Source of the DNA: Hemileia vastatrix
Taxonomy: Eukaryota; Basidiomycota; Pucciniomycetes; Pucciniales; Zaghouaniaceae
DNA: 64,000 nucleotides
Direction: 5' to 3'
Assembly: GCA_030280995.1 (NCBI GenBank)
Contig: JASXTE010000005.1
Coordinates: 24,779,001 to 24,843,000 of the forward strand
The notes beneath the pieces are model-generated. The model had not been told where the DNA came from. It saw nothing but the letters and a program-made list of their open reading frames with translations, and did not search any database. The position numbers were made by a program, and so were the translations under genes. Numbering within the stretch: position 1 is the first letter of the stretch; every line of letters begins with the position of its first letter. This document shows, in pieces, positions 4,151 through 45,121 of this stretch.

Positions 4151-4545
4151 ATATAACCTATAATTTTTATGAAATGAGAAATAAACTATATTTTATTAAC
4201 AGTGTTGATATTTAGAATCAGTGTTTCTAATAATGAGGGTGAGAAACATAACAGTGAAGCTGTATTCAGAAAATTTATTTAAATGATTGAATAATATATT
4301 TTTATGAAGATTTTATATTTATAAAATTTAGTTCTTATATTTAGATCCCTGGAGATGAGGCCTTTAAAATGGTTCCCTATAGGATATTATCTATTTTAAT
4401 GAGTAAAACTAATGAAATGTTTTGTAAAAGAGTTTTATTTATAAGGGTATTACTATTTTATAATTTTTTATGTAAAATAATAATGATTGTTATTAATATG
4501 TGTTGTTGTGGTTGATGATTAAGTTTTTCTCTGTTTGATTTATAT

Positions 4546-14856: not shown

Positions 14857-15016
14857 TATTTTTGGTGACATTCACCCCTTACTTTGATAAAATGCAGGGG
14901 AAGTATTTCCAAATTTTCAAATTTGACATGAAAAATTGATCACTTGGAAAAATTTTGGTGATACCCACCCCTTACTTAAATAAAACTCAGGGGAGGGTTT
15001 TTCCAAATTTTCAAAA
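14857..15016 (+). repeat. Two-copy tandem repeat, ~92 bp period
   Basis: Copies at 14857-14925 and 14949-15016 share TTTTGGTGA, CACCCCTTACTT, CAGGGGA and TTTCCAAATTTTCAAA. Confidence 0.8.
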
Positions 15017-15708: not shown

Positions 15709-18170
15709 CACTACACAATATAGGGGGTGAACTAACTAGAAAGTCCCCAAGATGAACTCATATAGAGCTCAGAATGAACTCATAATAAGCCCATAGTGAA
15801 ATATACTTGAAAACCCACCTTAAATTTTTCTACTGAGTGTTGTTCATCTCTGATTTTATGGTTGCTTTTTCAATAGCTCAATGTGTGTTTGATCTGTGGT
15901 GAGTTTGAGTCCAAGGTTGTGGACTTGCTAGTAAGTCTACCCCATATTGTGTTGTGTCTGTGTCAGATTTACAAAGTAACCTTGCTTGAGCTCACCTTAG
16001 AATTTTTCATTTCTGAATTTAACATCTTCTTGGGTCACATCATCTCATCATTAAAACGTAATACCCCAATTATACTTATATTTTGTGTGTTTCTTTTTCC
16101 CTTTTTTTAAATTTCTATTCTCCTCTTTTTAACTACTATTCATTACCTTGATTTCATTTATGGTAAGTTTCTCTCCTCCAGTTCATCATATTCTCATCTC
16201 CTCTCCCCTACCTCATTATTATTTACACAATTTTACCTCTCTGTAACCTCTTACTACACTTTCTGCTGCTAATCTCCCCTTCTCCTTTAAACCTTCACTA
16301 CTTTCTCCATTTGTAAAACATTCCATTACCTTCCTTGACTTGCCAACCCAGGCACACAACTACACACCACCCTCTACCGATTCCAAATTGACTTGTGCCA
16401 CCTGTTCTTTCTCCTCTTACAAGTCACCCCATTTCATCATAGGTTTTTATTCCAATTTTTCTCACCTCTCCCACTCCTCATCCTCACAATAAAACAGAAA
16501 AAAAACCTGAAAAACTATGAGGCTCACCAATCCCTGTCATCTTTCACCTCATCTTGTCACTGAAAATCATTCTAACCCCAATCCTCTCTACCTCACTGCA
16601 ATTGGCTCTCCTCCCTTTTGGTTTCAAATTCCTTGAATTTTTTTTTCTCTTTCACCTTCTTGCACATCTCCTCAACTTTCTCCTCTTTCTTATGCCACCC
16701 ATTACCTATCCCCATCTCTCATCATCACATTTCAAAACTCCCCTTCTTTTCACCATTCCCCTCTACTAAAAAAAACTAAAAAAATAATCAGCAACAAAGT
16801 AACAAACTAACTAAAAATTTAAAGAAGAAATCAACTAAATATTTAACAATAAAGATAAATAGTACTCAACTGATTAAAAAATAAAAAAAGCAAAGCAGTA
16901 TTAAAGTAACTAACTAACTTTAAAATCAAACAGCAATCAATCATAAGCTAAAAAATAAAAGAAATAATAAACTAACTAGAAAACTAAAATTGAAAAAGAT
17001 TAATAGTCTAACTAACAAACTACTATTGCAAAGCAGCAATAAAATAATCAGCTAACTAAAAAAGAGAAGTAGTGATCAACTAATAAACTAACTAAAAAAT
17101 AGAAGCAGTATTAGAATAATTAATTAACTTAAAAAGCAAAACAGCAATAAATAATAAGCTTAAAAATGGAAGTAATAATAAACTAACTAGTAAACTAAAA
17201 TTGAAAAATGTAATAAACTAACTAGCTAACTAGAAATTTAAAGCAGAAATAAATTAACCGTCTAACTAAAAAAGCAATGTAATAATCAACTAATTAGCTT
17301 ACCAAAAAATGAAAATAGCATTCAACTAATTATATAACTTAAAAATCAAATAAACAACCAACAAACAACCTAATTAAAACTTTAAATCAAAAATAAACTA
17401 ACTAATTAACTAAAAAAGTAATTTAGTAATTAACTAATGAATGAACCAAAAAAGAAAAACAGTATTTAAATAATTATATAATTAAAAAAGAAAAACAAAA
17501 ATAAAAAAAACTAACTTGAAAATTGAAGTAGGAAATAACTAACTTAAAAAGAAAAGTATTAATTAACTAAATAAAAAAGCAAAGTAGTAATAAATTAACC
17601 AAATAACTAGATCTGTGAAGTAGTAATAAACAACAAAATAAAAAAATGATATAAGTTTTAATTAACCAATAAAAAAAATTAGGCTTTCTGCCACCATTGA
17701 AGTAAAATTTAAGTAGATAGTTGAATGTTACTTTGATTATTTCATACTTAATTGGCTTATTCAAACACCCTAAATTGTATCTCTTACTAATCACTGTATA
17801 AAATTAAATTTCAAACATCACATTTTGGAATCTTTTCATTAATAATCAATTCAATTTTATCCACATGAATTTCAATGTGCAGCTTTTAGTAGGAAAACAC
17901 TACAAAACATACACATAATTTCTGTTGGTTACTTCTGGAAAAAAATTTCTGCTGATGAAGTGACTAGACAAGTTTACTGGCTAATTTTCACTTTGGTATA
18001 TATACCAAATTGAAAATGCTTCAACCATGTTCCAGTAGTCCATTCATATTACTTATGTATGTTTCAAATATTTTATATAAATTTTATTTTGTTCCTCCAC
18101 TTGTTTTTTTGTAATCATGAATCATAAATATCACCATAATAATGGATTTCAAACCAGTCTCCTGAAAAAA
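15709..18170 (+). repeat. Left inverted arm of E0
   Basis: The reverse complement matches 28685-30503 in order: the terminus, a CTTCTTGGGTCACATCATCT block at 16028, a pyrimidine-rich block (16120-16760), the AACTAACTAAAAA minisatellite, and the TTCAAACCAGTCTCCTG block at about 18150. The left arm has about 150 bp extra near the terminus (15740-15960). Open frames at 15883, 16554 and 17567 have no conserved product in the other arm. Confidence 0.85.
16780..17640 (+). repeat. AACTAACTAAAAA-type degenerate minisatellite in E0 left arm
   Basis: Irregular units of roughly 40-60 bp containing AACTAACTAAAAA, GCAAAGCAGTAATA and variants. The mirror stretch in the right arm (29220-29590) is less than half as long, so the two arms have changed length independently. 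Confidence 0.8.
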
Positions 18171-18449
18171 ATGAAATTATTTTAGAGTGTTTTAGATTTC
18201 CAAAAGAAAGTTCAAAATTATATAGTGATTTTGATTGAAAGTTGAAAAAAAAGAAAAGCAGGAGCAAGAAAAGTGGGATGCAAAATTAAAAAAATTGAAC
18301 AGAGTGGTGTTACTTAATGACGCAAATTAAGTATCAGTAGGTATAAAAACTTACACTACCAGCATATAGGACATGTTTTACATGTAATTTTACACAAAAA
18401 TTACAAAAGTCAATGCATTTGACATGCATCAGTTTGTGTAGCAGCAACT
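18171..18449. other. E0 spacer left of nested E1
   Basis: Not inverted-repeated in the right half. The last three bases, ACT (18447-18449), are the target duplication of E1. Confidence 0.6.
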
Positions 18450-18839
18450 CACCACAGGAAATCTGGGGGTGAACTGCTAGCAGTTCCCTCTTTTTGAAAC
18501 TATCAGGAATTTGTCAGGAAACTGTTGGGAAACCATCCTGAAACTTTCAGAAAGATGTTTTTAAATCTGATGAAAATACATTGAAAAAATAAACTGTCAC
18601 AGATTGAATCCAGAACAATCCCTCCTTGAGCAGAGCTTAAGAACCACATTGAACATCAGTTAATCTCAGGTTTGGCAAAAGGTTGAACAACATCACTTAG
18701 CATACCTTAATATTCAAATATTAAACTTGAATATATGTTGCATGTATGATATAGATGCATATGCATTTGACTTTGTATGGTGGATACTTATTGCATGCTA
18801 AAAAGTGATGTGAAATGCCTATCCAAAGTGTATGCATAA

Positions 18840-19085
18840 TGACTATGAAGAATAAATATGCATAAAAAATATGCATAAAAATATGCATAAAAAATATGCA
18901 TAGTGATTATGCATAAAAAATATACATATTGAATATGCATAAAATATGCATATTGAATATGCATAAAAAATATGTATATTGAATATGCAAAAAAGGTGCA
19001 TATATGTATATGAATAAAATATATTAATATGCATATAAATCTGTATAATGAATATGCATATGAATATGCATAAATATGCATAATG
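18840..19085 (+). repeat. TATGCATAAAAAA microsatellite-like tract
   Basis: Roughly 15-20 degenerate units of (A)TATGCATAAAA, period 13-20 bp, inside E1. The minus-strand frames rich in His, Ile, Tyr and Phe here are artefacts of the repeat. Confidence 0.85.
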
Positions 19086-19739
19086 ATTGAAAAATGAAAA
19101 AAATGATGCTTAACGAGTATATTTTATGCATAAATAGAAATATGCAATATGAATTCATATTGCATACAGATAACACTGACAAACCATTTTGACCAAAACT
19201 CATACTAAATTTTCATTCTGGACTAAAGGTGTGAGGGAAGGAAGAAAAACAGTCCAACGTTAGAAAAATGCTACATGCACTCATTTTGTAGCAGAGCAAA
19301 TGAGAAGTGCTGAATTATGGTTGATGCCCATAATTTAGTATGATATCATAATTTTATTTAATTGTTTTCAATATTGAAAAGACTTTAGGTCGGTTGGTAT
19401 GGATCTAGCTGTGCCAGGGTCTAATCTAATTATTTTAATAATATCTTAATAATTAACGGGCTTTAATACAAAAACAGGTTGTATTTTTTATGGGATATTG
19501 GATATGATAAGGTCTTTTGTAAAAAAAACTTATGTTGTTTAAAAATATTCCTGAATCAGATGTGGGATAATCACTACAAAAAATTGTAGTACTGTGGGCA
19601 ATAAAATATATGCACAAGCAGTAAAGAAAGGACCAAGTGAACCCTTTTTGTGCAGTGGGAATCATTAGAGTGGAATTGTGGATGAAAAATATAATTCATT
19701 ATTACCATTTTAGTTAATCAAAAAATTTATAATATTAAA
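19086..19739. other. E1 internal sequence before the satellite, no gene
   Basis: AT-rich. A short inverted motif (CACTACAAAAAATTGTAGTA) lies at 19572-19591. The 70-codon minus frame at 19453-19665 has no recognisable features. Confidence 0.4.
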
Positions 19740-22700
19740 AAGAACTATTGATTAATTGGTATTTGACCTTTGTGCCTCACTCATATTTATCATTTGATTA
19801 ATTTTTGTCACCATTATGTTATTAATATTATAAGTATAGCAAAAACTCGTGTGCCAGATGCATACCGGGTGATGTTACACCTTTTATAATATTATTAAAT
19901 AAAGGTAAAAAAATATGAAAATGATTTGTTTTACAAAAAATAAATTGATATCCAAAAGCAATATGAGGGATAAAAAGGTAAAATTAAAGGGATCAAATAT
20001 GAAATAAAAAATTAAAGTGAAATTCCTCCCATCAAGAGCAAGTAGACATGATGGGGTGAACGCCCACCAGTGGCACTAAACTTGGACTATAATTTCTTTT
20101 TTTTAAAAATAAAAAAAATCCACTGGAGCTTTACCAAAACTTCAGGATGACAATTTTGCCATATCAAACAACTTCTAGTGCAATTATTGAAGAAAAATTC
20201 ATTTTCATTACAATAGAGAGAATTGATCACATCAGATTGCATGTGACCAAAAGTGTCCAGCACAAGTTCGGCCGAACTTGTGCTGGACACTTTTATGATG
20301 GAGGTTAGCTAGGGTGGAATTTTTCTTCAGTTCATCTGGTATTTCTTATAAACATGTCCACTGGTATTTGATATTTGTGCCTCACTCATATTTATCCTTT
20401 GATTGATTTTTTGTCACCATTATGTTTTAATATTATAAGTATAGCAAAAACTCGTGTGCCCAACGCGTACCGGGTGGTGTTACACCTTTTATAATATTAT
20501 TAAATAAAGGTAAAAAAATATGAAAATGATTTGTTTTACAAAAAATAAATTGATTTACAAAAGCAATATGAGGGATAAAAAGGTAAAATTAAAGGAATCA
20601 AATATGAAATAAAAAATTAAAATGAAATTACTGCCATCAAGAGCAAGTAGACATGTTGGGGAAAATTTCCACCAGTGAGGCTAAACTTGGACTATAATTG
20701 CTTTTTTGAAAAACAAAAAAGTGCCAATCTGAGGTTTAAAAAAACTTCAGCAGAACCATTTAGCCATATCAAAAAACTTCTAGTTCAATGATTGAGAGAG
20801 AATTGATCACACCAGACTGCATGTGACAAAAAGTGTCCAGCACAAGTTTGGCCGAACTTGTGCTGGACACATTTATGACGGAGAGTAGCTAGGGTAGAAT
20901 TTTTCTTCAGTTAATCTGGTATTTCTTATAAACATGTCCATTGGTACTTAATCTTTGTACCTCACTCATATATATCATTTGATTAATTCATTGTCACCAT
21001 TATATTATTAATATTATAAGTATAGCAAAAACTCGTGTGCCCAATGCATACTGGGTGATGTTACACCTTTTATAATATTATTAAATAAAGGTAAAAAAAT
21101 ATGAAAATGATTTGTTTTACAAAAAATAAATTGATATACAAAAGCAATATGAGGGATAAAAAGGTAAAATTAATCTCAAAGAGATCAATTATAAAAAACA
21201 AAATACTAGTAAAATTCTTGCTCTCAAGAGCCAGTAGAAGAGTTGAAAAAAATGGGAGCCATCAGGGCTAAATTGTAATAAGTGACCTTTTTTTTAAAGA
21301 TAAAAAATTATACACCTGAGGTTGTGAAGAACAACAGGTGGATGATTCAGCTAAACAAAACTACTTGCAGTGAAGTTTAATAAAAAAATGTTTTTTTGTT
21401 GCCATATAGAGAATTGATCCCATATGACTGCACGTGACTAAAAGTGTCCAGCACAAGTTTGGCCGAACTTGTGCTGGACACTTTTATGATGGAGAGCGGC
21501 TGGGGTAGAATTTTTCTTCAGTTCATCTGGTAGTTCTTAAAAACATGTCTACTGTTATTTTATCTTTGTGCCTCACTCATACATATTGTTGAATTAAATT
21601 TTTGTCTTAATTATATTATTAATTATATAAGTATAGCAAAAAATCGTGTGCCAAATGCATACTGAGTGATGTTACACCTTTTATAATATTATTAAAAAAA
21701 TGTATAAAAATATTAAAATAATTTATTTTAAAAATTATTAATTGATATCCAAAAGCAATATGAGGAATAAAAAATTAAGTTAAAGTGATCAAATATGAAA
21801 AACAAACTCCAAGTATTATTGCTAATATCAAGGCCAGTAGAGATGTTGAAGCAAATGAGAGCCATCAGGGATAAATTGTACTAAATTGATTGTTTTTTAA
21901 AGATAAAAAATTGTGTACCTGTGGTTTGGATGAAATCTAGGTGGATAATTCAGCTATATCAAACTACATCTAGTGAAGTTTCTTATCAAATAATTTTTTT
22001 CATTGCCATAGAGAGAATTGATCCCATCTGACTGCACCTGACCAAAAGTGTCCAGCACAAGTTCGGCCGAACTTGTGCTGGACACTTTTATGATGGAGAG
22101 TAGCTAGGGTGCAGGTCTTCTTTAGTGCAACTGTTATATTTTTAAAACATGTCAAATGGTATTTGATCTTTCTGTGTTATTCATATTTTATTATCTGATT
22201 AATTTTTTTTCATTAGAATTTTATTAATTTTATTAGTATAGAAAAAACTTGTGCGCCAAATTCATGCCATGTTATGTTACACCTTTTATAATATTATTAA
22301 AAAATGTTAAAAAAATATGAAAATGTTTTCTTTTCCAAAATTATAAATTAATATCCAAATGTAACATGAGTGATAAAAAAGTAAAGTAAAAGAGATCAAA
22401 TATGAAAAAGAAAAATTCAAGAAAAATTCATGCCTTCAAGAGCCAGTGGAGGTGTTGAAACAAATGGGTGCCATCAGGGCTAAATTTGATAAAATTTAAT
22501 TTTTTTTAAAGATAAAAACTTTTTCACCTGAGGTTTGGAAAAACTCAAGGTGGATAATTCAGCCATACCAAACTACTTCTAATGTAATTATTTAGCATTT
22601 TTTTTACTTTAATTTCCACAGAGAGAATTATCCCATCTGACTGCACCTGAACAAAAGTGTCCAGCACAAGTTCTGCCGAACTTGTGCTGGACACTTATAT

Positions 22701-25700
22701 GATGGAGAGTAGCTAGGGTGGAAGTGTTTCTCAGTACATCAGTTTTTTGCTTTTCACATTTCTATTGGGTTTTTAACTTTTTTTTATCATTCATATTTAT
22801 CTTATAATTAATTTTTTTCACCATATATATTATTAATGTTTCTAGTATAGCAAAAACCTGCATGCCAAATGCAAAATTGGTGATGTTACAACTTTAATAA
22901 TATTATTATATAAAGTTAAAAAAATATGAATATGTTTAGTTTTTAAAAAATTAAATTTATATTTAAAATTAAAAAGAGTACTAGAAAAGTAAAATGAAAA
23001 TAAATGGGATCAAATACAAAATAAAAAATACAAGTAAAATTCTTACTATCAAGAGCCAGAAGTGGTGTTGGGACAGTTGGGGACCCCTAGGTCAAGACTT
23101 GGTCTAAACTTACTTTTATGTATAGCTAACAAATTTTGACCTGAGGTTTGGACAGACTTCCAGGGGACAAATTTACAATATTGAACATTCTTTACTTCAA
23201 TAATTGAGTGAAATATCATTTTTATTGCCATAGAGAGAATTTATCTCATATGACTTCATGCAACCAAAAGTGTCCAGCACAAGTTCGGCCGAACTTGTGC
23301 TGGACACTTTTATAATTGAGAGTAGGCATACAGCAAATCTTCTTAAACTCAAAAGGGATTTCTTATAAACATTTCCACTGGAATTTGATCTTTCTGTGTC
23401 ATTTAAATTTACCATTTGATTAATTTTTTGTCATCATTATATTATTAACGTTATTACTATAGTAATAACTTGTGTGAAAAATGCATACCAGGTGGTGTTC
23501 CACCTTTAATCATATATTATTAAATAAAGGTATAAGAGTATGAAAATTATTTATTTTAAAAATTAAAAATTGATATACAAAGCAATATGAGCAATAAAAA
23601 AGTAAAATAAAAGGGATAAAATAAGAAAAAAAAATCTAAGGAAAATTCCCACTATCAATAACAAGTAGAGGTGTTATATCAAATGTGCAACACCAGGGCT
23701 AAACTTGCACTATATTTTCTTTTTTGTTAAACCAAAGAAAGTGTCCTGATGAGTTTTGAAAAATCATCAGGAGGACATTTTGGCAATATCAAACTACTTA
23801 TTGTGCAATGATTGAGCAAAATGTCATTTTCATTTCCATAGAGTAAATTTATCCCATCTGACTGCATGCAACCAAAAGTGTCCAGCACAAGTTTGGCCGA
23901 ACTTATGCTGGACACTTTTATGATGGTGAGTATCTAGGGTGCAGGTATTCTTCAGTTCATCAGGTATTCCTTATAAACAAATCCTCTTGTATATGATCTT
24001 TCTGTGTCATTCATATTTATCATTTGATTAATTGTTTTTCACCATTATAATATTAATGTTATTAGTATTGAAAAAATTTGTAAGCCAAATGCATAATGGG
24101 GGATGCTACATCTTTCATAATCTTATTAAATAAAAGTAAAAAAAATATGAAAATTATTAGTTTTACAATAAATAAATTGATATTTGAAAGCAAAAACAGG
24201 AATAAAAAAGTAAAAAAAATGTGATTAAATATGAAATTAAACATTCAAGTAAAATTTCTGCCATCAAAGATAATTTGAGTTTTCAGACCAAATTTGCACC
24301 ACCAGTTCTAGATTCGGAATATGTTTTCTTTTTTTAAAAATTAATAAAAGTGTCCACCTGAGGTTTTTCAAAAGATCAGGAGGATAGTATAGCAGTATAA
24401 AGCTACTTCTTGTTCAATGATTGAGCAAAAATTCATTTTAACATCCATTGAGTAAATTTATCCCATCTGACTGCATGCAACCAAAAGTGTCCAGCACAAG
24501 CTCAGCTGAAATTGTGCTGGACACTTTTATGATGGAGAGTAGCTAGGGTGCAAGTCTTCTTCAGTTAATCTTATATTCATTTTAAAAATGTCTATGGGTA
24601 TTTGATCTTTCTCTGTCATCCATATTTATTATTTGATTATTTTGTAGTCACCATTATATTATTAATGTTTTTAGTATAGCAAAAACATGTGTAATGAATG
24701 TACACTGGATGATTTTACAACTTTAATAATATAATATAATAAATGTAAAAAAATGTGAAAGTTATCAGTTTTACCAAAATAAAATTGATATTTAAAAGCT
24801 AAAGGATAAATAAAATGGTAAGATTAAAATTAAAGAGATCAAACATGAATAAAGATATTAAGTATAATTTCTGCTATCATGAGCCAATAGAGGCTTCATA
24901 AAGAATGGGAACCATCATAGATTAACATGGATCAAATTTACTTTTTACCAAAGGAAAAAATTGTCTACCTTAGGTTTGGACAAACTTCCAGGGAACAATT
25001 TGTCTATATAAAATTACTTTCAGTGCAATGATGGAGTGATAATTCAGTCTCTTTTCCATAAAAAGAATTGATTGGGTCTGACGGCATGAAACCAAAAGTG
25101 TCCAGCACAAGTTTGGCCAAACTTGTGCTGAACACTTTTATCATGAAGAGTAGCCAGGGTGCAAGTCATTTTTAATCATCTGAAATTTCTTATAAACATT
25201 TCCACTGTTATTAAATCTTTGTGCCTCACTCATATTTATCAATTGATTAATTTTTTGTCAACATTATATTATTAATATTATCAGTATAGCAAAATATTGT
25301 GTGCCAAATGAATACTGGGTGATGTTACACCTTTTATAATATTATTAAATAAAGGTAAAAAAATATGAAAATGATTTATTTTACAAAAAATAAACTTCTA
25401 TCCAAAAGCAATATGAGAGGAATAAAGTAAAACAAAAGAAATCAAAGATGAAAATTAAAATCCAAGTTAAATTCCTGCCATAAACAGAAAAAAGAGATGT
25501 TGAATAAAATTAGCACAATCAGGGCTAAACTTGCACTAAATTTTCTTTTTTGTAAAAATAAAAAAAAAATCCACTTGAGCTTTACCGAAACTTCAGCATG
25601 AAAATTTTGCCATATCAAACTACTTCTAGTGTAATTTTATATTAAAAATTTATCTTCATTTCCATAGATAGAATTGCTCCCATCTGACTGCACCTGACCA

Positions 25701-26980
25701 TAAGTGTCCAGCACAAGTTCAGCCAAACTTGTGCTGGACACTTTTATGATGGAGAGTAGCTAGGGTAGAGTTTTTCTTCAGTTCATCTAGTATTTCTTAC
25801 AAACATGTCTGCTGGTATTTTATATTTGTTCCTCACTCATTAATATCATTTGATTAAATTTTGGTCGTCATTATATTATTAATTTTATAAGTATAGAAAA
25901 AACTCATGTGCCAAATGCATACCAGGTGATGTTATGCCATTTATAATATTATTAAATAAATGTATAAAAATATGAAAATAGTTTATTTTAAAAATTATTA
26001 ATTGGTATTCAAAAGAAATATTATGAATAAAAAATTAAGTTAAAGGGATCAAATATGAAAAAAGAAATCCAAGTATTATTCCTACTATCAAAGGCCAGTA
26101 GAGGTGTTGAAGCGAATGAGAGCCATCAGGGATAAATTGTACCAAATTGACTTTTTTTCAAAGATAAAAAATTGTGCACCTGTGGTTTGGATGAAATCTA
26201 GGTAGAAAATTTGGCTATGTAAAACTACTTCTAGTGAAGTTTTTTATCCAAAAAAAATTTTTCATTGCCATAGCGAGAATTGATCTCATATGACTGCAAC
26301 TGACCAGAAGTGTCCAGAACAAGTTCGGCAGAACTTGTGCTGGACACTTTTTTGATGGTGAGTATCTAGGGTGCAGCTCTTCTTCAGTGCAACTGGTATT
26401 TTTTTAAAATATATCCACTGGTATTTGATCTTTCTGTTTTATTAATATTTTATCATTTGATCAATTTTTTGTTACCAGTATATTATTATTTTTATTAGTA
26501 TAGCAAAAAAACATGTGCCAAATGCTTACAGGGTGATGTTAAACCTTTAATAATTTTATTAAATACAGGTAAAAAATTATGAAAATGATTTGTTTTACAT
26601 AAAATTAATTGATATCTAAAAGAAAAAAAAGGGATAAAAAAATAGGTTGAATAACAGGGATTTTATATGAAATTCAAAATTCAAGCTAAATGCCTACTTT
26701 CAAGGCTCAGAAGAGGTGTTGGATAAAATAGGCATCATCAGGAATAAAATTTTACTTAATTTGATTTTTTGAAAAACTAAATAAAGTTTTCAACTGATTT
26801 TTTTCCAATATTTAGTTGCACACTTTATCTATATCAAATTACTTCTAGTACCATGATTGACCAAATTAAATCCTCATTTCCATATGCAGAATTGATCCCA
26901 TATGGCTGGACCAGGCCAAAGGTGTCAACCACAAGTTTGAGAATTCTTCTGGTGGACACTTTTATGATGGACAGTAGTAG
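19740..26980 (+). repeat. Tandem satellite of ~608-bp units, each with a 46-bp palindrome
   Basis: Twelve units are recognisable. The palindromes start at 20249, 20829, 21440, 22044, 22653, 23266, 23874, 24483, 25094, 25700 and 26306, with a decayed twelfth near 26918. The intervals are 580, 611, 604, 609, 613, 608, 609, 611, 606 and 606 bp. Each unit also has a second, weaker hairpin of related sequence (GTCCACCTGAGGTTT..AACTTCAGG) about 120-150 bp before the main one. Other conserved blocks are TGATGTTACACCTTTTATAA and ATGATGGAGAGTAGCTAGGG. The left units are most alike and the right units are most diverged. I see no gene. Confidence 0.95.
20249..20294. repeat. Perfect 46-bp palindrome, reference copy
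   Basis: The half-site is AAAAGTGTCCAGCACAAGTT followed by CGG, and the second half is its exact reverse complement, so the dyad centre is CGGCCG. The copies starting at 22044 and 23266 are also perfect across the 46 bp. Others differ at one or a few positions (TTTGGCCG centre in the copies at 20829, 21440 and 23874; CTCAGCTGAA at 24483). As RNA or single-stranded DNA it would make a 23-bp stem without a loop spacer. Confidence 0.95.
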
Positions 26981-27803
26981 GGTGCAAGTCTTCTTTAGTT
27001 AATCTAGTATTCCTCATAAACATTTCCAACTTATTTTTGGACAAAAATCAGGTGGAAAGTTTTTCAATATAAAATTACTTCTAATGCCATGATTGACTAA
27101 AAATTGATTCTCATTGCCATATAGAGAGTTGATCCCATATGACTGGATCTGGCAAACGTGTCACCACAATTTTTGATAAACTTAAGTTTGAAAATTTTAT
27201 GATGGAAAGTAATTGCAAGTCTTCTTCATTTCATCAAGTAATCCTCATAAAAATTTCCACCTGTATTTTGGCTAAACTTCAGGTGGACACTTTGGTCATA
27301 TTAAATTAATTCTAGTTCCATGTTGATGAAAAAAAGATACTTATTGCCATATATAGATATTAATCCCATCAGACTGTGCCTTTCCAAAAGTGTCTACCTG
27401 AATTATGGCTAAACCTCAGTTGGACACTTTTATGATGCAGAGTAGCTAGGGCAAAAGTATTCTTCAGTTAATTTGGTATTCATAATAAATTTATCCTCCT
27501 GAAGTTTATCCTAACTTGAGGTGGACAATTTCGGAAAGCACCAGTTAGTCACTATCCATCAAAAAAGTGTTCACCAAAATTTTGGCTAAACTTGTGGTGG
27601 ACCCCTTTGATCAGCCACAGTCAGATGAGATCAACTCTTTAGATGGGAATGAGGATGATTTTTTGGTCAATCATGGAAATAGAAGTAGTGTGATGTGGCC
27701 AAATTACCCCCCTGAAGGTCAGACAAACCTCAGAAGGCCACTTTTTAGCAGGGAGTTACTGAGAAAAATCCATTTATCAGAAGGAAAATCTTTTATTGGA
27801 TAG
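26981..27803. repeat. Degenerate half-units and one inverted unit at the end of the satellite
   Basis: Spacing falls to about 190-200 bp. Weak hairpins lie at about 27150-27200, 27258-27292 (CCACCTGTATTTTGGC..CTTCAGGTGG) and 27385-27431 (AAGTGTCTACCTGAA..CTCAGTTGGACACTTTT). The segment 27555-27760 matches the reverse complement of a normal unit, so one unit is flipped here. Its plus-strand frame translates as (A)KLVVDPF..QSDEINSL, the counterpart of a minus-strand frame in units 1, 6 and 7. Confidence 0.75.
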
Positions 27804-28340
27804 ATGCCAAGGTTTCATACTTGTGTATTATGGTCAGTATTAATTTTGAAAGTGTCTGTCCAAGCAATTTCATTGCCCATCATGACTCATTTTGTTTTAA
27901 ATGTTTCAAACTGCGTGATACAGTATTAAGGTGTCACATAGTATAATTAAGTTCTATTAAGTGCCCTCCTATGATACCTAAATTTATAATTTAATATCTT
28001 ACATAATAATTTTTTTTATATAAATTCATCAATATTTTATTTTATTATCAAATTTAATAGAGCAAGTATCCTGAATTATTATATATGCATAAGCTTAGGT
28101 TAGATCAATTTGTGCTCAATTTGTGCTCATCAGAGGACCAAAATCAAGTTCTGGAGGATCAACTTGTGCATAATTTGGAATCAGTTGATATTCTGTCTAT
28201 AATCAATCTGAGAATAAATTTAAATCTAACTCTAATTTACTTATGTTTATAAAGTATTCATAAACCTGGCATATTTAAGGGACACTCTAAATTTCAAGAG
28301 AGGGGATTGCTAGCAATTCACCCCTAGATTTCCCATGGTG
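27804..28340. other. E1 right subterminal region and terminus
   Basis: No gene. TGTGCTCAATTTGTGCTCAT near 28112 gives short GCTCA repeats of the kind often bound by CACTA transposases. From about 28190 to the end the sequence aligns with the left end of E2 in reverse orientation. Confidence 0.6.
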
Positions 28341-28684
28341 ACTGTGCCTTTTGTGCACTGTGTAATTTCCATCCTGAACCACCAACATCTCACTTGCACC
28401 ACCTCTACCACCACTTCTACATCACAATTATCACCTCCACCACGAATGCCACCTCACTTGCACCATAACCACCACCTACATCTCTACAATAAAAGGAAGG
28501 TGGTGGTTTGAGTAAGGTGAAGGTTAATAAAATTGTTCTTATAAAGTTCCTGCTGAATAGCTCCTGTACTTGAATTATAAAAAATGACTAATAATTTTAC
28601 TTTTCATAAGTGGTTTGAGCCAATAGAAGTAGACGACAAGTTTTCCTGTTACCCATTTATTATATAAGAAGACTGTATCATTTT
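28341..28684. other. E0 spacer right of nested E1
   Basis: ACT at 28341-28343 is the second copy of the E1 target duplication. A run of CACC-containing short repeats (CACTTGCACCAC, CACCTCCACCACGAATGCC) lies at 28380-28480. No gene. Confidence 0.6.
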
Positions 28685-35290: not shown

Positions 35291-36959
35291 CACCACAAAA
35301 AATCTAGGGATGAACTGCTACCAATCCCCTCCCCTGAACTTTAGAGTGTCCCTTCATTATTCCAGGTTTATGAATTATTTATTAATTTAAGTAAATAAGA
35401 GTTATATTTACATTTATTCTCAGATTGTTCCAAAAAGTAACCTTAATTGATCTCAAGTTATTCATAAGTTGATCAACTATAACCATGATATTATTCTTCA
35501 TTGAGCACGCATTGAGTGCATATTTATCCAACATAAGATTTTAAATATCCAATATGATTATCAATTTAGAGGATGAAAATTATTCCTTAAAATACCTAAG
35601 CATTTCCTTGCATCCAAAAGATAAACCATAAAATTATGAAAGTAAATTTAATTTACTATAATGATATCTTTTACTACACAATTGCAACACTAGATAAATA
35701 TAGCAAATATTTCAATCACAAATATTAATAACTATAGGGATTTAAATAAATAATGCCATTCCTATTTTTAAATTTCAAAAAGAATATAGTCACTTCTCAC
35801 TTCAAATCTATTAAATCTTTGTAAAACTAAATTTTGTGTAATTTTTTTTATTTTACCTGAAATATAAGACCTTCAGGATATTGAAAATAAAATCTTCAGT
35901 TACTCAATTAAAAGAAATGTTTATATTTAAATAAAAATAGAAATAGTTCTTAAAGTGTATGACTTGAAAGTTTGTTATGGAAATTAATATGCAAGTTTTC
36001 CTATTTAAATATTTAATGCTTATATAAATCACTTTCACAACTTTTGGTATGATTACAAGTGAAATAGTGACTGCATATAAAAGTGGAAACCAATATAATG
36101 ACAAAAATATTTACAAACTTTATTTCAATTTAAAATTTATCTGTAAAAAATTTTGAAAGTAATATTTTATTCATCTTTTTAAGGATCTCTTCCTCTTCCT
36201 CTACCCATCTATTTTTTGATAGGGGGTATCAAACTTGAACAAATATTCCTGGAAGATTTCATTTGAAAACCACCTCATAAAAATACCATGAAATATGGCT
36301 GATTTGGTACCCAAAATTTCAAACATGAGGTCAAATACATCCTACTTTAGTGCAAATTTTCAAACCACAGCTCAGCCCGCCAGTATAAAGATCCTGCCAA
36401 TTAACCACACATCACAACTTTCCCCTCCCACTTTTTTGATACAAATTTTTACACACCATGCCCCAGAAAGTTTTGCACTTTTCATTCCTTTCTTTATCAA
36501 AAATTCTTGAACAAGTTTCTATCCTCAAAACTCAGTCATCATGCTAATCACACTACAAAATTTTCAACACAATCCTTTTAAATCCTTTTTTCATGCTCTC
36601 AAAATGATAAAGTTTCATGTACTTTCCACTTATGTTTTTTATTTAATTTTTCCACATTGACTTTGATTTTGAATTTTCACTGAAAGCATATTTTTTCCTT
36701 TAATTATTTATTTTGGTTCATCATATCAACATGAAGTTGCATATTTTCAAAAATTGCATAATTTTTCATTATTTCTGTTTTCCAATTATCCCTGATATCC
36801 TTTCATTCATCTTCTCTTACTTCCTTAACTATTTTTCTATTTCTTTTATCCATCACTTCCTGAACTTCTATCTGGTCTTTTTACATCTTTGATGGCATCT
36901 CATCAAGTAAGTCATTCTCCAACCATCTTTTTTTCAATTTTTGTTTCTTTTTCTACTGT
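35291..36959. other. E2 left subterminal and non-coding region
   Basis: The first ~250 bp match the right end of E1 (GTTTATGAAT, TTATTCTCAGATTG). A pyrimidine-rich block at about 36460-36959 resembles the non-coding part of the Harbinger-like element (12901-13350). No credible gene. Confidence 0.5.
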
Positions 36960-39900
36960 TACTTAACAGAAATGCACTTGTGGAAACCCCTCATAGGGAT
37001 CCTTTTTTGTATCTTCTGGTATAAGCTCTTTAAATGGACTTACAATTAGATAGACTTTTTCATTATTGTCCTTTGACCTAAAGATCTGATCAATATGCAC
37101 AAACTAACTATCTTCTCTAAAGTAGAATTCAATTGTGGAATTCCCAGGAATCATATCATGATTTTTATAACTCTTTCCATAGACCAATATGATTGCTAAA
37201 TTTTCAACTACCCAGTCTCATACCTTCTCTGATGGCAAAAAAGCCTGTTTAGATGTCTCTTTACTCAAGAGTGACCTTACCCATTTTGTAAATAATGCCT
37301 CAGTTAAATTTATATTTCTTTTTTTTATATCATGTTCAATTTTTTTAATATTAGATCCATACTGAGAATCATCTTCAGCTACACTTAGTTCCAATACCCT
37401 AGACTTCCAATTCGAGTGCTTGAGCATGGTCTGTGGTATTTCTTCTATGTTCAATAAAAATAAATTAGCTAATTTGTATTTTAATCATTTAATTACCAAA
37501 CTAAATACCTGGATGATTATTGCTTGGAATTTCCAATAATATACCATTAACTTTTTCAGCAGCCTAAGTAGCCATACATACAGGTGGACCAAAATGTTTA
37601 ATCATTTCTGAAAAAAAAAATGTTGAGTGAAATACAGATTTGGGTTAAAGCTGATATTTTTCCAACCTTCTTCCAAGAAGTTAAGACACTCTAATTGAAG
37701 TTATTTTAATTCATCAACTTCATTGGTGGATAAATTTTTAAAAGTCAAAAAGTTGCTAATTGAACATAAAGTGGTGAGTAATTTGAGAAGATAATATTCT
37801 CTAGGTTTGTGGTCTGACATCACTGATGTCTCAGCTTAATTTAATTTTTCTACCCAAAGGGGGATAAGTTAAAAAGGAAATTAAACAGTATAAAGTATAT
37901 TCCACTCTGCAGCTTTGGAGGAACCTGACTTTTTAGATCCTACTTGTTTTGGAAGTTGTTAAATCCAGGAGGGTTTTTTTGTTTGCTCAATCACATTCCA
38001 CACTGCCCCTAGCTCAGTGGCTGACAATTGTGGATTTATAGTTCTCTCTTTTTCTTTTCCCTTCTTTTTATCTTCCTTACTTCTTATAGTCTCATATGAT
38101 GAATTAGATCTTTCAATTTCAGATATGCTAATACTGGTTTTCCTTAAGTTATAGGTCAAATTTCCACTTCTACTTCCAGAAGCATGCTCTGAGACAAACT
38201 CTAAGGTTTGAAAGTGATGTTCAGAACTTGATGACTTTTTCCTGATGTTTGATCCTTCTTATTCAGCTCCTCCACTATCCATTTTAAGATATTTTTGTGA
38301 CAGTCTTGTTGTACTTCTATATTTTAGTCATTTATGCCATCCCACTGGCTCAATATTATCAACATCACTGCTGATAAATCTGCTTCTAAGTTTTTTATAT
38401 TGCTTATTTAGAAATATATCAGAACGTGAATCATCATTGTCTCTTCTTACATGCCAATTTTTTTCTTTTGTCAGCTTTTTTCTAGTTCTATTGCAGCATT
38501 TTGTATTAGATAAAGATTTAGACTGTGACCTTTAAAATTTCCAAGCATATGTGAATGAATCAAGTCAGTTGAGAAATATTCCATAGGTTGCCAATATAAA
38601 ATGTTATTTAGCTTGCTACATCCAACCTCATGACTCCTAACAAGATACCCACTCCCAATGTGACCAACACTTTTTCCACTTCTCTACCCAGTGCATATGA
38701 TCCTCATGAGTATGTAAGGAAAAAATTTCAACTTTATTCTCACCATTTTGTCTTTTGAAATATGAAAGACAGAGCAGAACTTAGTGGCTTGGTGACTTGA
38801 AAAACCAGAAATTTTTTATATTGCAGGAATGTCTCCTATTAAAGAGAATAATGCAGCCCTTATTTTTTGGCCTCGTGGATAGTGAGGTGTTTTTTCAATA
38901 AATATTCCATCCCATAGAGTCTTTAGTTCATCTAAAAGAGGCTTCAGAATATGATTTATTTTTTCACTCATTAGCTCAGTTAGACCAGGAATAATAGCAT
39001 AAAAAATATTTTTTTGGTTTGGTATTGATCTTCTGGAGGCAAGTGCATACACACCAACAAGATATTACCCATAGATTTCTGATGACTTCCAATACAATTT
39101 CCACCCAGCCTAAACCAGTCAAAATATAAACTAAAAATTTAATTAAATCTATTTTTTTTATACCCATCAACACTTCTATTTTGATTCATAGAAATATCTG
39201 GAAAATTTTTCCATAAAAACCATCATATACATCTTTCATCACATTCCTTTTCATGTTTTCTAGAAAATCATTTTTCTTCTAAATCAGCATCTCAAATTTG
39301 ATTAGTTGAAGCTTTCCTGAAACCCATTCAACCAAACTGTTGTGATGAAATGTTTTACAAGGATTGTAGATTGCTTCTTCTTCTTTGTACTTAGCCAAAT
39401 ACAAACTTTCATCACAATTGACAGTTTTTTCTCTCTGTTCTAAATCTTTCAAATAGTAGTTTGAGGATGAATAAAAAGTTTGAGTGCAAGATAAGATTGA
39501 TCATTGGTGTTTTGTGTTATACTCAAAGAGCAAAGCACTTATCACATAATTTCTTGGTGAAAAAAAATGTATTGAGTTGCAATTGATTAAAAACTGTCTC
39601 TATAGAAAGGGGAATCAGGCTTATAATTCTACTAGTATCTAGTTTCCCTACATCACTAAGAAGTTTTAGTTTGTTAATTTTGTCACTCAAATATTGAACA
39701 CATCCTTCTTTTATTAAATGATGGATAAGAGAATTTTTCGCTGCTTGCCAAATTATCTTTTGGCTATACAGCTCTTCAAAATTCAATTGATTTGACTGCG
39801 GTAGAAAGACAATTGTATCTGAAACAGGCTTCCCCTAAGAAAAGAAAAAATATAAAGATTAATTGAAACATAATTAATCTTTATTTACCAAATGTTTATG

Positions 39901-40113
39901 TCTTACAAGATCTTGGATGTTGGATCCTAATTTATGTGAAGCGCTGGATGTACTAACCATCTGTGATTTGCATTTTCCTTCCTCTTCATGTTTGGAGTAT
40001 GAATGAGATGTTTTAAAAGCTACACCAACTTCAAAGATTCCCAATGAGGTCTGATGCTTTCTAGATGAACATCCAAGCTCTTCAAATTTACCAATGCAAA
40101 AAAATGGTGGCAT
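36960..40113 (-). pseudogene. TNP2-type (CACTA/Plavaka-like) transposase, decayed
   Basis: The minus strand reads from an ATG-region frame at 40113 (MPPFFCIGKFEELGCSSRKH, a Cys-containing N terminus) through 39786-39523 to the transposase core. In the core I see a DWF..GGNCIGSHQKSMGN-like block (about 39150-39080), then MHLPPE and YAIIPGLTE, then ILKPLLDELKTLWDG and GQKIRAALFSLIGDIPA (39052-38816). These are the hallmark blocks of TNP2 transposases. Further on are GFSSHQATKFCS, WSxLNNILYWQP..D..H (about 38600), GAVWNVIEQTKKPSWI (near 37970), HFGPPV and FKELIPEDTKKDPYEGFP (about 37000). Several frameshifts and stops break the frame, so it is inactive. It would mobilise E2 and, by shared ends, E1. 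Confidence 0.9.
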
Positions 40114-41094
40114 TTTATGACTTCTGGATAAAAGAAATATGTTACTGGATGGTTGTTATTGAACAAACTATTAATTTATTGTGAAACCCTTGCTAAAATA
40201 AGCTAATTTTTGCGTCTCAAGAAGTTTATCGACAAGTTGGTTACCATGGATTTTCTTAATTCTTTGTTTCATGCATATCAACCATGCATTAAGTAGGTAT
40301 TCATACTCTGCATCAGCAAAATGTTTCAGACTTGCTACATTTTACAATTTTGCATACATGTTTGTCAAGCAGTTTTTTTTTAAAAAGCATAATACTATAA
40401 GAGAATACAAATTTATTGCATTTTTAAATATTGGAGAAACTATGATATAACTTAAATTAAAATAATACCATTTAATTTATAATAATAAATTTATTTATGT
40501 GTTGCAATTTTTTTTTCTAAAATCACCTGCATTAATAAAATTGTTCCAATTAACAGAAAGGTTTTCACTAATAATCACTATAAGATATAAAAAAATTTAT
40601 AATATTTATTTTTCACAATATAAAATTACAGTCTGAAAAATAAATATTTTTTCAACAAAATATATAATTTTAAATTTTTAAATCTAAGAGGTCATCAAAG
40701 TAAAGCTTCCAGAATCCACAAAAGAGAGTTTTTACATTAAGTTTCTTATTCCAAAATCTGAAAAATTAGTATGGTTTCCAAGTAATCTTTGTTGATAAAC
40801 ATTAAACCTACTAATAATTTGTTAATATAAATTTTTAAAATAAGTTTTTCAATAAAATCAACAAGTTCAAATTATTTCATTATTTGCATTAAAATATTAT
40901 CAAAATAACTTGAAAATCAAAATAATTCTGCATTATATTTTCACCCATTTATCATGCAATAATTTTCTATTACAGCTGAGTTATTTTCTTTTGAAATAAT
41001 TGGGAAGATACATAGATATCCACATTTTATAGAGAAAGATATTTATGAGAAAGCTCATCATTCTTTCCACTCAACTCTTCATTATTAATTCCTT
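40114..41094. other. AT-rich spacer between E2 genes
   Basis: No coding signal. It would contain the promoter of the transposase and the 3' end of the upstream gene. Confidence 0.5.
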
Positions 41095-41289
41095 TCAAAA
41101 TAAAAAGTTTATTATAGTAGTGTTTTTGTTGCCATATCCTTTCAAAATTTTATATTTCCCTTCATTTTTCTTTTCATGATGTATATGGTGAGCTCTAGTT
41201 GCTCTTATTTTCTTCCATGAAAAATACCTACTACTACCTGTGTGCTTAATAAAAGATTCAATGAGATACTCTCTCAATCCGGTTCTCAT
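41095..41289 (-). CDS. Unrecognised 64-codon open frame in E2
   Basis: It starts at a real ATG (41289) and encodes a basic, Lys/Arg/His-rich peptide (SFIKHTGSSRYFSWKKIRAT). It lies downstream of the SNF2-like remnant on the same strand and could be an exon of that gene or an independent small E2 gene. The family is not recognised. Confidence 0.3.
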   Translation of the reverse strand: MRTGLREYLIESFIKHTGSSRYFSWKKIRATRAHHIHHEKKNEGKYKILKGYGNKNTTIINFLF

Positions 41290-41979
41290 TTTTGAAGGTC
41301 TATTTACAATTTCTGTTGTGTTCTTTAAAATATTTCACCTCAGTCTAATGAATGGAGGCTGAACCCAACCAAAGAACGACTACACAGGCTTTCATTTTTC
41401 AATATAAGCTCTCTCAACATTGATATTATGAGAATCTTTTCAAAAATGACAAATATTGCTCAGACACCAAAATTGATGATGAAGGTTCTTTTAATCAGAT
41501 TTTATTACCATGGAGATCTGAAGAATTATCAAGACTTGCACAAAAACTCAACCATAAACACATTCAAATCTGTAAAAATTCCCCTTATTCAGGAGAAGTA
41601 CTTAAGAACTTGGCATTATATGATAGATTGAATTTGGTATCCTCAATTGAGACTCACTTTAATTTTTTTCCAGTCTCCAGAGGCTTCCCAAGTGACTGCT
41701 ATTCTTTATTATATCTTGCTTCTCTTAATCCTCAAAAATTAAGACTTCTTAATTTTCAAGCCCCAATAAAAATTTCCTACATACTTGAAAAAATTTCAAA
41801 TTCTAATATGAGTTATTGATGAATTCCCTAATAAATAATCTAATAGACTTGCATTCCTCATTTCCAATGTTTGGGACACTTAGCCTTAAAAAATTAGAAC
41901 AGATAAAATTTCTTAGCTATGACACAACTGTATTTAATGAAAATTTCACCTACATTGATAGCTCAATCTTTTTTCTTTG
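41290..41979. other. E2 internal sequence, possibly 3' part of the SNF2-like gene
   Basis: Plus-strand frames at 41428 and 41610 are likely shadows. The minus strand shows only short coding-like pieces. Confidence 0.3.
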
Positions 41980-44210
41980 TAACTTATAAGTTCTGAATTC
42001 AATACTTCTGCTTAAAAAATATATGAGTAAATGAAATTCGTTTTGTTGACCCATTCTATACAGACAATCAACTGCTTGCTTTTCAACTGCTGGATTCCAA
42101 TTAGGCTCCTTTTTCAATATATTAAACAAGTTCTCTTTCCAACCTTTTTTATTTCAATATAAGACTCTTTGAATTACCCTTATATATACATTTTGTGCAC
42201 ATCTCAAGTCTATTCCAACTCCTGAAGCCTTGATTGTACCAAGAAAAACTTAAATCTTTCATCATTTTGGAATTTGTCCAGATTTTCATCCCTTTTTTTC
42301 ATGCTCAACTTTCATGCAAGCTCTGTGTATCTAATTCCATGGTCATCTAAAGCCTTTTTTATATTTTTTCAATGGATAGAATATTGAAATGTTGATTAAG
42401 CTAAAAATAACTTATTGAGACAATTAATAGAATTACTTATATTTCCAAAAAGTCTGCATATTCTGAAAATATAACAGATTTGGGACAAATTATCATCCTT
42501 TATCCCTTTAAGAAATTTTCTAAATGACTGATTAGATGTATAATCTTTGCTGAATATTTCAACATGAAAGGAAATGTTGGAGGTTGATCTGGGTTTTTTT
42601 AGACAGGGTGGTTACAAAGTTTCCACAAAATTGACAGCTCTCCGAGAAACTCGGCTGAGTCCCAAGGGAGGTTGGTGTTTTGAGAAGGCCCATAGTACTC
42701 AGAAAAACTTTCTTGAAGCTTGGTATTTTATGAGTGCCAAGGATCTGATAATTCTATACATATTCCTTGCTCAATTTTTTGAGGAAGTGATAAGATTGCT
42801 TCTTTAGTCCTCCGCAGGCATATGACATTCATGAAAGTATGAATTGATTTTATTTAGCTAGATATTCCTCTGTTTAAGCCATTCATAAGAATATTAATCC
42901 ACAACCATTTTTCTTGTCATCTTTCAATTATAAGGAATGATATAAGGCTTTTCAGATCAGTGGTCTAGCTCTTAAGTGGTGTCCCTTCCAAGCATAGTCA
43001 ATACTCAGCCTCCGGGTCTGATATATTCTGATTCTTCTTCAACTTGGGATTCTTGATTAAACTTTTAAATTATATTAAAAATTTCATTAGCTTTTATATT
43101 ATTATGTTTAAAAACTTTAATAATTCAAATGAATGCTTACAGAGCCTCATCTAAAACTATTATGTACCAAATGAGTTCATGAGTTACCAGAAGAATAGGT
43201 TGTGGAGATTTCTTTGAAGAAGTTGGACTTGCTGTTTCATAGGTATTCAAAACAACTAGTTGGTTCTGAAGCTCCTAAAAATCAATTTTCTTTGAATCCT
43301 TCACATAAAGAACCTTGAAAGGTAGTTAATTATCTTCAAAGTGAGCTCTTATTTCATTGACCCAGTTTGATAGTGTTGCAAGGGGAAATGATGAGAGTTT
43401 CTAATTTCCTAACTTTCTCTTCTCCACCACCTAAGAGTTGGAATCATCTGGCTTCACTTTGAGTTTCAGTAACTAGGCCAAGAGTTGAGAGGGTCTTTCC
43501 CAAGCCCATATCATTAGCTGGAATTGAACCGATTCCTGCAGAGGATAACTCTTCTTCAGGAAATTTTTCATGATATTTATTAGAACCTAATCTAATACAG
43601 CTGTTGTCTGCATACCTCCACATGTTTTCCAACTTTTCTGATAAGTTATTTTCATTTTCTATTATAAAATTGATAACTTGAATCTGATGCGTTTTCAGAG
43701 TTGTTTTGATACCACATATAGATAGATTTTCCATTTGATTATCCCTTTTCCAAGAAATTTCAGAAGTTTTGTTAATACAAGAATGAGGTATATTGAAGAA
43801 GATGGTTGGATTGTAGTGTGTAATCAGTGTCAAATCAATTTGTGTGTTTCTTAATATTTCTTTAGCCTGAATAATAAAATCTGTCAAACAAAAAAGGAGG
43901 CCACAAATTCTATAGTGCCTGTTTAAAAGTAGAACCAAGTAAGAGAGAAATTAATAAGGTATTTGGGGATTTAAAGACCTTTCCTTAATTAAATTTTAGA
44001 TCTAGATCTAATTTCTCCTAGTTGTCCAATTTGGCAGCTCTGTTCGTTAGAAAGATCACCAATATTTGTTGCTTCTCCTTCTTTGAATAATCCAAAACAT
44101 GAAATAAAGATCTTTCTTGTTGCATAATAACTGGAGTGGAGACTTCATCAAATACTGATCTTTCCTTTGGAAAAATATGTTTAAAATCTAAATAATATTG
44201 TCCAATGCAT
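41980..44210 (-). pseudogene. SWI2/SNF2 DNA-dependent ATPase (HLTF/Rad16-like), decayed copy inside E2
   Basis: Minus-strand pieces follow SNF2 order. LKTHQIQVINFIIENE (motif Q region) and NDMGLGKTLSTLGLV (Walker A, motif I, Lys-Thr intact) occur in the open frame 43938-43444. TLII..PLATLSNWVNEIRAHF (motif Ia) is at about 43390-43330. LPQKIEQGICIELSDPWH and ILWKLCNHPV lie between about 42770 and 42600. KKRDENLDKFQNDE plus LVQ..LQ (helicase C) is at about 42290-42220. EPNWNPAVEKQAVD and YRMGQQNEFHLL (motifs V-VI) are at about 42130-42050. Weaker pieces upstream (to 44210) may be the N-terminal substrate-recognition part. The DEAH region was not found intact. Stops and shifts make it a pseudogene. 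Confidence 0.85.
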
Positions 44211-45121
44211 CTTAAATTTTAAATTTTAATTTAATGAATTTTAGGGTGATGGCGGTGGTTTAAAGAAAGAGAGGATGAGAGCAAATTTTTGAAAGAGAAT
44301 AAAGTAGAGAATATATATAATATTGGATGACTATTCAAAATTAAATTTTTCATGTATTTTAATAATTAATGTTGACTCAAAATTTAATAATAACTAAATA
44401 CAGATAGATATGTGAAGGAAGTGCATTATTTTAGAGCCTTATTTTTGTGCCAATATTGAAATTATTTTCTTCAATAGCATCAATGGAAAGAAAAATCATT
44501 ACTATTTTTTCCCCTTATAAAATATATATATATATTTCTTTATACATTAAATTTCCTGAACATTGTCTTATATTTTTTTATTCTAAGGAACAATAAGAAA
44601 TTTCTATTAATAAGGGCTCAATATCAACTTTTGTCTGGAAAATTTAAAATTATGTTCTAATATTTTTACAGAGTTATATTTTTATTAATAAAATTCTTAA
44701 AAAGGACTTAAATACTATTCTTTTTTATATATTTGCAGAAATAAAAATGATTATTTAAATAATATTCCAGACCTAGTATACTATGTGTAATTTAAGATAT
44801 TTCTACTAATATAAAACCTGACCTCCCAAAATTGAATTGATCTAGATGTAAAATTTAATATTATGGTATGTTAAGTGCTGTGGCTCAACCATTTCTCAAA
44901 TTTGGTCCAACTAATGCTCAACTTGAATATGAAGCTCTGCTCAAGAAGTGATATATTGAGGCTCAATTTAGGGCCAACTTTTTTTTCAAACTTTTTTCAT
45001 CTAATTTAAAAAAAAGGTTTATTAAGCTTTCACAACATTTCCTCAATTTTTTCCCACCCTCTTCCTGAAGGTTTCAAAGAGAGGGAGCTTCTAGCACTTC
45101 ACCCCCTGATTTCCCCTGGTG
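44211..45121. other. E2 right non-coding and subterminal region
   Basis: Contains an (AT)n tract near 44525. The last 250 bp have repeated GCTCAA/TTGAGC hexamers (44884-44966) and match the left end of E1 inverted. Confidence 0.6.

What the first reader, a model, noticed from the sequence alone, without database searches (positions are those of the whole stretch)
19740..26980. A transposon whose body is a 12-unit satellite of exact 46-bp palindromes
Within E1, units of about 608 bp repeat in tandem. Each carries a palindrome that is perfect over 46 bp in at least three copies (20249, 22044, 23266), while much of the unit around it has drifted. The palindrome stays near-perfect even in units whose flanks are clearly diverged, which suggests selection or gene conversion on the hairpin itself. 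A dense set of regularly spaced dyads inside a CACTA-type element could be transposase or host-factor binding sites, a source of hairpin RNA for silencing, or a replication-linked amplifier. I know of no described satellite-in-transposon of this kind.
Basis: partly seen in the sequence, partly recalled or inferred. Interest (0 to 1): 0.85.

Follow-up and report, generated by a model that had tools for sequence, protein, structure and literature searches.

The report
Transposon stretched by palindromic binding sites
A mobile DNA element of a rust-like fungus carries a long row of nearly identical 46-letter mirror-image sites that selection seems to keep intact only in the copies that still jump, and transposase-carrying relatives carry the same site, so these are most likely docking sites for the jumping machinery.

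Summary
Element E1 (18450-28340, flanked by ACT duplications) is a CACTA-type transposon without a transposase gene. Twelve tandem units of 580-613 bp fill about 73% of it; eleven carry the 46-bp palindrome near-intact, three perfectly. The host looks like a rust fungus (747.6-Mb assembly), not a plant.

Between unit positions the palindrome changed 13 times in 46 columns, against 756 in 553 columns elsewhere. But among 30 resident copies it gains private mutations at the background rate: 67 observed, 62.6 expected, nearly always in one arm at a time. So no repair or conversion protects it in resident copies; selection must act in the lineage that transposes.

TNP2-encoding CACTA elements in the same genome carry compact arrays of the same palindrome (majority sequence identical over 46 bp, adjacent DNA near chance). 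Of the 40 best array hits, 24 have a TNP2 match upstream on the same strand.

Best reading: palindromic subterminal binding sites of a CACTA family, spread over the body of a non-autonomous member. The binding protein is inferred. Palindromic subterminal repeats and satellite arrays in CACTAs are published, so this is a new variant.

The parts
18450..28340 (+). E1: non-autonomous CACTA-type element, 9891 bp, ends CACCAC...TGGTG
   Evidence: Termini and flanks read; longest stop-to-stop frame 111 aa.
18447..18449 (.). left copy of the target duplication ACT
28341..28343 (.). right copy of the target duplication ACT
19757..27027 (+). array of twelve tandem units of 580-613 bp
20249..20294 (.). 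palindrome, unit 1, perfect 46 bp
20829..20874 (.). palindrome, unit 2, 2 mismatches
21440..21485 (.). palindrome, unit 3, 1 mismatch
22044..22089 (.). palindrome, unit 4, perfect
22653..22698 (.). palindrome, unit 5, 2 mismatches
23266..23311 (.). palindrome, unit 6, perfect
23874..23919 (.). palindrome, unit 7, 2 mismatches
24483..24528 (.). palindrome, unit 8, 4 mismatches
25094..25139 (.). palindrome, unit 9, 3 mismatches
25700..25745 (.). palindrome, unit 10, 3 mismatches
26306..26351 (.). palindrome, unit 11, 3 mismatches
26918..26963 (.). degenerate palindrome, unit 12, 12 mismatches (degenerate in the 7 copies compared as well)
27014..27744 (+). older compact row of degenerate dyads, 76-137 bp apart, between the array and the right end
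   Evidence: family D9
28107..28169 (+). three direct TCAAYTTGTGC repeats (core matches at 28107, 28118, 28161) resembling the inner palindrome arm, 180-233 bp from the right end
   Evidence: the pre-set 9-mer test finds only one exact word
35291..45121 (-). E2: member of the TNP2-encoding family, flanked by ACT on both sides, its palindrome array missing
   Evidence: 88% identical to relative A1 over E2 positions 2-8187
38816..39064 (-). remnant of a TNP2 (Transposase_21) transposase in E2
   Evidence: PF02992 E 5e-4, below Pfam's cut-off

Best explanation
E1 is a non-autonomous CACTA/EnSpm-type transposon. Its 46-bp palindrome is the subterminal recognition site of a CACTA family of this genome: TNP2-encoding relatives carry a compact row of the same palindrome, about 102 and 137 bp apart, downstream of the transposase. 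In E1 the site lies in a 608-bp unit that also holds about 377 bp of unrelated sequence, and the unit was multiplied to twelve, so the sites are spread through the body. The spacer and a second dyad drift; the palindrome is kept because only copies with working sites go on transposing. Shown: element ends, target duplications, shared site, selection in the transposing lineage, neutral decay in resident copies. Inferred: that a DNA-binding protein of the element (in the role of TnpA of En/Spm) or a host factor binds the dyad and that E1 is moved by such relatives.
For: Ends CACCAC..GTGGTG with matching 3-bp duplications in all 4 fetched copies where both ends were found (TAT, CCT, ATT, ATA; of 10 fetched), plus E1 and E2. 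The palindrome changed 13 times in 46 columns against 756 in 553 (lowest of 463 outside windows: 38). Private changes in 30 resident copies: 67 of 5149 sites, 62.6 expected from base and CpG context. Arm changes one-sided 67, complementary double 1. TNP2 relative A1 carries 13 palindromes, two others 17 and 11; A1 has Transposase_21 and SNF2 domains over Pfam's cut-offs. The majority of 40 compact-array palindromes equals E1's over 46 bp; flanks 27% and 35% identical, chance 26%. 24 of 40 array hits have TNP2 3-20 kb upstream on the same strand, none downstream or on the other strand, shifts average 0.1. Sites tolerate inversion of spacers and spacings from 72 to about 610 bp.
Against: No binding protein was identified and no binding or transposition shown. 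Two of five TNP2 relatives had no palindrome in the 3.5 kb looked at, and E2 has none. A1's right end was not found within 3.2 kb after its array, and its left end begins AACCAC, so its own duplication is not shown. E1 and A1 share only 73% over the first 268 bp, so the exact helper of E1 is unknown. Within compact arrays the palindrome (86.5%) is not more conserved than the short spacer (91.1%). Some E1 units keep weak similarity to a compact array for about 33 bp beyond the palindrome. The 40 palindromes were picked by likeness to E1's, which leans towards agreement. The link to subterminal half-sites is weak (one exact 9-mer, 17 of 1000 shuffles).
Confidence: 0.7

Rival explanations
1. Gene conversion or template switching at the hairpin keeps the palindrome uniform, without selection for a binding site; it would have to act only in the mobile phase.
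For: Spacers in compact arrays occur in both orientations, as expected if palindromes recombine or template switching occurs there.
Against: Resident copies show no slowing of mutation and no arm-to-arm copying (67 one-sided against 1 complementary double). The homogenised block would have to stop at the palindrome in every unit, and also pass between families whose flanks are near chance similarity.
Confidence: 0.12
2. The palindrome acts as RNA: transcripts through the array give hairpins that feed or block small-RNA silencing.
For: The site folds as a perfect hairpin (DNA parameters -24.1 kcal/mol, shuffles -6.2, z -9.4).
Against: The letters, not only the pairing, are conserved: of 800 arm pairs in 40 compact-array palindromes 96 have one-sided and 2 complementary double changes. 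No Rfam family matches 15000-31000. Expression could not be tested.
Confidence: 0.08
3. The palindrome is a host replication or chromatin factor site and the element profits from copy-number or silencing effects rather than from transposase binding.
For: Sequence-specific conservation and tolerance of spacing and orientation fit any dimeric DNA-binding protein.
Against: Arrays sit downstream of TNP2 in transposase-encoding elements, where CACTA subterminal repeats are expected; places listed fall in clusters typical of such arrays. A host site outside the elements was not looked for systematically.
Confidence: 0.1

Closest known systems
Tgmt*, CACTA element of soybean (PMC2613891; passages read)
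   Same: CACTA element with 3-bp duplication; subterminal repeats form palindromes, 12 of them in one border and 2 in the other; repeats are thought to bind a TNPA-like protein.
   Different: Tgmt* palindromes lie within 732 bp of one end of a coding element; in E1 the array fills the body of a non-coding one at 608-bp intervals, as 46-bp units, in a fungus.
CACTA elements (Jozin) of Chenopodium with an internal 171-bp satellite array (PMC8978399; passages and section 10 read)
   Same: Satellite array inside a CACTA element, towards the 3' end, shared by several copies.
   Different: That report section describes no palindrome, no selection on part of the unit and no link to binding sites.
EnSpm elements of rust fungi (PMC12730594; passages read)
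   Same: 5'-CAC..GTG-3' ends, 3-bp target duplications, Pucciniales.
   Different: The passages read report no palindrome array; those elements were chosen for a TET/JBP gene.
En/Spm of maize (TnpA/TnpD; described in PMC2613891)
   Same: Repeated cis sites near the ends bound by a second protein, needed for excision; non-coding members move in trans.
   Different: 12-bp motifs close to both ends, not 46-bp palindromes through the body.

Membership tests
CACTA/EnSpm superfamily | termini 5'-CAC..GTG-3' with inverted repeats | tested here: met
   E1 CACCAC.../...TGGTG; copies CACCACGGG.../...GTGGTG. The ends read CACCA rather than CACTA.
CACTA/EnSpm superfamily | 3-bp target duplication | tested here: met
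   E1 ACT, E2 ACT, and TAT, CCT, ATT, ATA in the 4 of 10 fetched copies with both ends.
CACTA/EnSpm superfamily | TNP2-type transposase in the autonomous member | tested here: inconclusive
   E1 encodes none (longest frame 111 aa). Relatives with the same palindrome and 73% similar left ends encode Transposase_21, but which element mobilises E1 is not shown.
CACTA/EnSpm superfamily | repeated subterminal motifs serving as binding sites | tested here: inconclusive
   Repeated palindromes found in E1 and in three of five TNP2 relatives examined; binding itself not testable.
CACTA/EnSpm superfamily | excision and reinsertion by the transposase | not testable with these tools
   Copies 98-100% alike over 171 bp at 40 scored places show recent spread, no more.
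Satellite DNA | tandem array that also exists independently of a transposon | not tested
   Copies examined lie in E1-like or TNP2 elements; free arrays were not searched for systematically.

The most novel reading that the evidence does not exclude
E1 is a parasite of a transposon by cis-site amplification: by multiplying the recognition palindrome twelvefold and spacing the copies out it captures more of the limiting transposition factor than the coding elements do, and selection on this competition maintains all twelve sites. The array would then be an evolved competition device, not a passive satellite.
Probability: 0.2. Interest if true: 0.75.

Novelty: new variant of a known kind. Interest (0 to 1): 0.52.

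Why it matters
Satellites inside transposons are usually treated as passengers. Here the same sequence is seen at two time scales, which separates selection in the jumping lineage from repair in resident copies, and a transposase-encoding family supplies the matching site. The result gives a defined 46-bp site, present as an exact 30-bp core at 2734 places, with which binding, competition between coding and non-coding elements, and origin of satellites from cis sites can be tested.

Tried and rejected
Rejected: plant host (best named relatives of the window's Ty1-copia polymerase are rust fungi). Rejected: E2 as proof that the family lacks the palindrome (E2 is 88% identical to A1 but misses its 3' part). 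Rejected: E1-type ends without palindromes as coding partners; the two fetched (L051, L052) are E1 copies broken off after about 1570 and 680 bp by other sequence with retroelement-like frames, judged by eye; two cysteine-rich frames in L052 gave no Pfam family over its cut-off. Weak: exact palindrome words in the terminal 420 bp. Led nowhere: A1's right end, Rfam and tRNA scans, PDB search with E2's SNF2-like frame, outer ends of the long inverted repeat around E1. Nine paper searches showed no description of this element or palindrome; that covers the open library only. Limits of the mutation test: copies were chosen by likeness to a 171-bp stretch of unit 4 (those columns were excluded), and 60-column windows under 80% identity were masked. 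In one search, 113 of 132 cut-out units passed the assignment filter. The palindrome's raw private rate is slightly above the rest (1.30% against 1.00%, Fisher P 0.045) before base and CpG context is allowed for.

Full report
1. What is there. The window holds twelve tandem units of 580-613 bp between 19757 and 27027. Eleven carry a 46-bp palindrome: three perfect (20249, 22044, 23266), eight with 1-4 mismatches; the twelfth (26918) has 12 mismatches. A dyad scan of the 64 kb gives 22 dyads of at least 16/20 pairs against 1-4 in five shuffles, and 11 of the 12 reaching 18/20 are these palindromes. For units 1-11 identity is 92.9% in the palindrome and 73.4% outside; the best of 487 other windows reaches 87.8%. 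A second dyad lies 137 bp upstream of nearly every palindrome (family D9); its columns average 63.8% identity, less than the rest of the unit, so it is not kept.

2. The element. The array lies in E1, 18450-28340, with inverted ends CACCAC.../...TGGTG and ACT on both sides. E1 has no frame longer than 111 aa. A second element, E2 (35291-45121, ACT on both sides, inverse orientation), has a TNP2 remnant and an SNF2-like frame (below cut-off). The best named relatives of the window's Ty1-copia polymerase are Austropuccinia and Puccinia proteins, 49-50% identical, so the host is taken to be a rust fungus or close kin. The window lies in a 747.6-Mb assembly of 791 contigs.

3. Copies. A 171-bp piece of unit 4 has 1010 first-look candidates; the 40 scored are 98-100% identical. 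Ten copies were fetched in 15-kb stretches. Four have both ends; they are 10.2-10.5 kb long with duplications TAT, CCT, ATT and ATA. Full copies have twelve good palindromes and a thirteenth, degenerate unit; E1 has lost one unit. The left-end 34-mer with up to two mismatches occurs 977 times on one strand and 1033 on the other, reversed control 0. The exact 30-bp palindrome core occurs at 2734 places, control 0; the exact 20-bp arm 12437 and 12442 times on the two strands, control 0.

4. Selection or repair? Between unit positions, using the majority of 7-11 copies for each of 12 positions, palindromes agree at 95.6% (arms 97.5%) and the rest at 76.0%; on a tree made from the flanks the palindrome needs 13 changes in 46 columns, the rest 756 in 553, and no other 46-column window of 463 needs fewer than 38. 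Among 30 copies at the same unit positions the result is the opposite: private changes hit 67 of 5149 palindrome sites and 786 of 78236 others; the expectation from base and CpG context is 62.6. In four palindromes of those copies 67 arm changes are one-sided, 1 is a complementary double and 1 a non-complementary double. Resident palindromes thus decay like neighbouring DNA. What keeps them alike must act in the line of copies that reproduces, that is, selection for spreading. C-to-T and G-to-A changes at CpG are about 14 times as frequent as elsewhere, which also explains the variable CGGCCG centre.

5. The partner. Searching with E2's TNP2 piece gave 2633 candidates, 150 scored. One hit, A1 (C531), has a left end 73% similar to E1's over 268 bp, SNF2 (E 4.8e-25) and Transposase_21 (E 9.9e-11) domains, and downstream 13 copies of the palindrome, alternately about 137 and 102 bp apart. 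Two further relatives have 17 and 11; two others have none in the 3.5 kb looked at. E2 is 88% identical to A1 over E2 positions 2-8187 but lacks the array. The majority of 40 palindromes from the three arrays equals E1's perfect palindrome at 46 of 46 positions, while the 40 bp on either side are 27% and 35% identical, chance 26%; these 40 were selected by at most 10 mismatches to it. A search with the compact array gave 2377 candidates; of the 40 best, A1 included, 24 have one of the listed TNP2 matches 3-20 kb upstream on the same strand, none downstream or on the opposite strand, and 40 shifted controls average 0.1, at most 2.

6. Against a simple story. In the compact arrays the palindrome (86.5%) is less alike than the short spacer (91.1%) and more than the long one (79.8%), and spacers occur in both orientations, so those arrays were recently rearranged and do not themselves show selection. 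Some E1 units stay weakly similar to a compact array for about 33 bp past the palindrome. A1's right end was not found. Three TCAAYTTGTGC repeats 180-233 bp from E1's right end resemble the inner arm, but the pre-set word test found one exact 9-mer, matched by 17 of 1000 shuffles, and none at the left end.

7. Mechanism. A dyad kept letter by letter, in either orientation and at spacings from 72 to about 610 bp, placed downstream of a transposase gene, behaves like a binding site for a dimeric protein. In CACTA elements such sites are the subterminal repeats bound by a TnpA-type protein, as described for En/Spm and, as palindromes, for Tgmt* (PMC2613891, passages). The protein is inferred. The 608-bp unit can be read as one pair of the older sites plus an insertion of about 377 bp, multiplied in tandem; one site of the pair was then allowed to decay. 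This history is inference.

8. Standing. A satellite array in a CACTA (PMC8978399), palindromic subterminal repeats and rust EnSpm elements with CAC..GTG ends and 3-bp duplications (PMC12730594, passages) are known. What I did not find in the nine searches of the open library is a CACTA element whose body is an array of its own recognition palindrome, with evidence that the sites are selected only in the transposing line.

Noticed in passing
15986-18174 and 28678-30403: E1 sits inside a long imperfect inverted repeat (arms of about 2.2 and 1.7 kb, 80-90% complementary); no matching target duplication was seen by eye at its outer ends.
   Followed up: partly
15709-15748: CACTACACAATATAGGGGGTGAACT..., resembling the end motif of E1 and E2, without a partner end found in the window.
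   Followed up: partly
18831-19086: A short-period ATATGCATA repeat with its own dyads just inside E1's left end; present in the fetched copies whose left end was aligned.
   Followed up: no
L053:3365-4441: The TNP2-encoding relative A1 also encodes an SNF2-type domain (E 4.8e-25); E2 has a similar frame. A helicase-like passenger or helper of a CACTA family.
   Followed up: partly
L053+L054, L056, L059 (compact arrays): Spacers between palindromes occur in both orientations, as if segments had inverted between palindromes.
   Followed up: partly
L001-L030: CpG transitions about 14 times as frequent as other C-to-T or G-to-A changes, as expected from cytosine methylation in this genome.
   Followed up: partly
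48440-53329: Ty1-copia element with LTRs 98.8% identical, a recent insertion.
   Followed up: no
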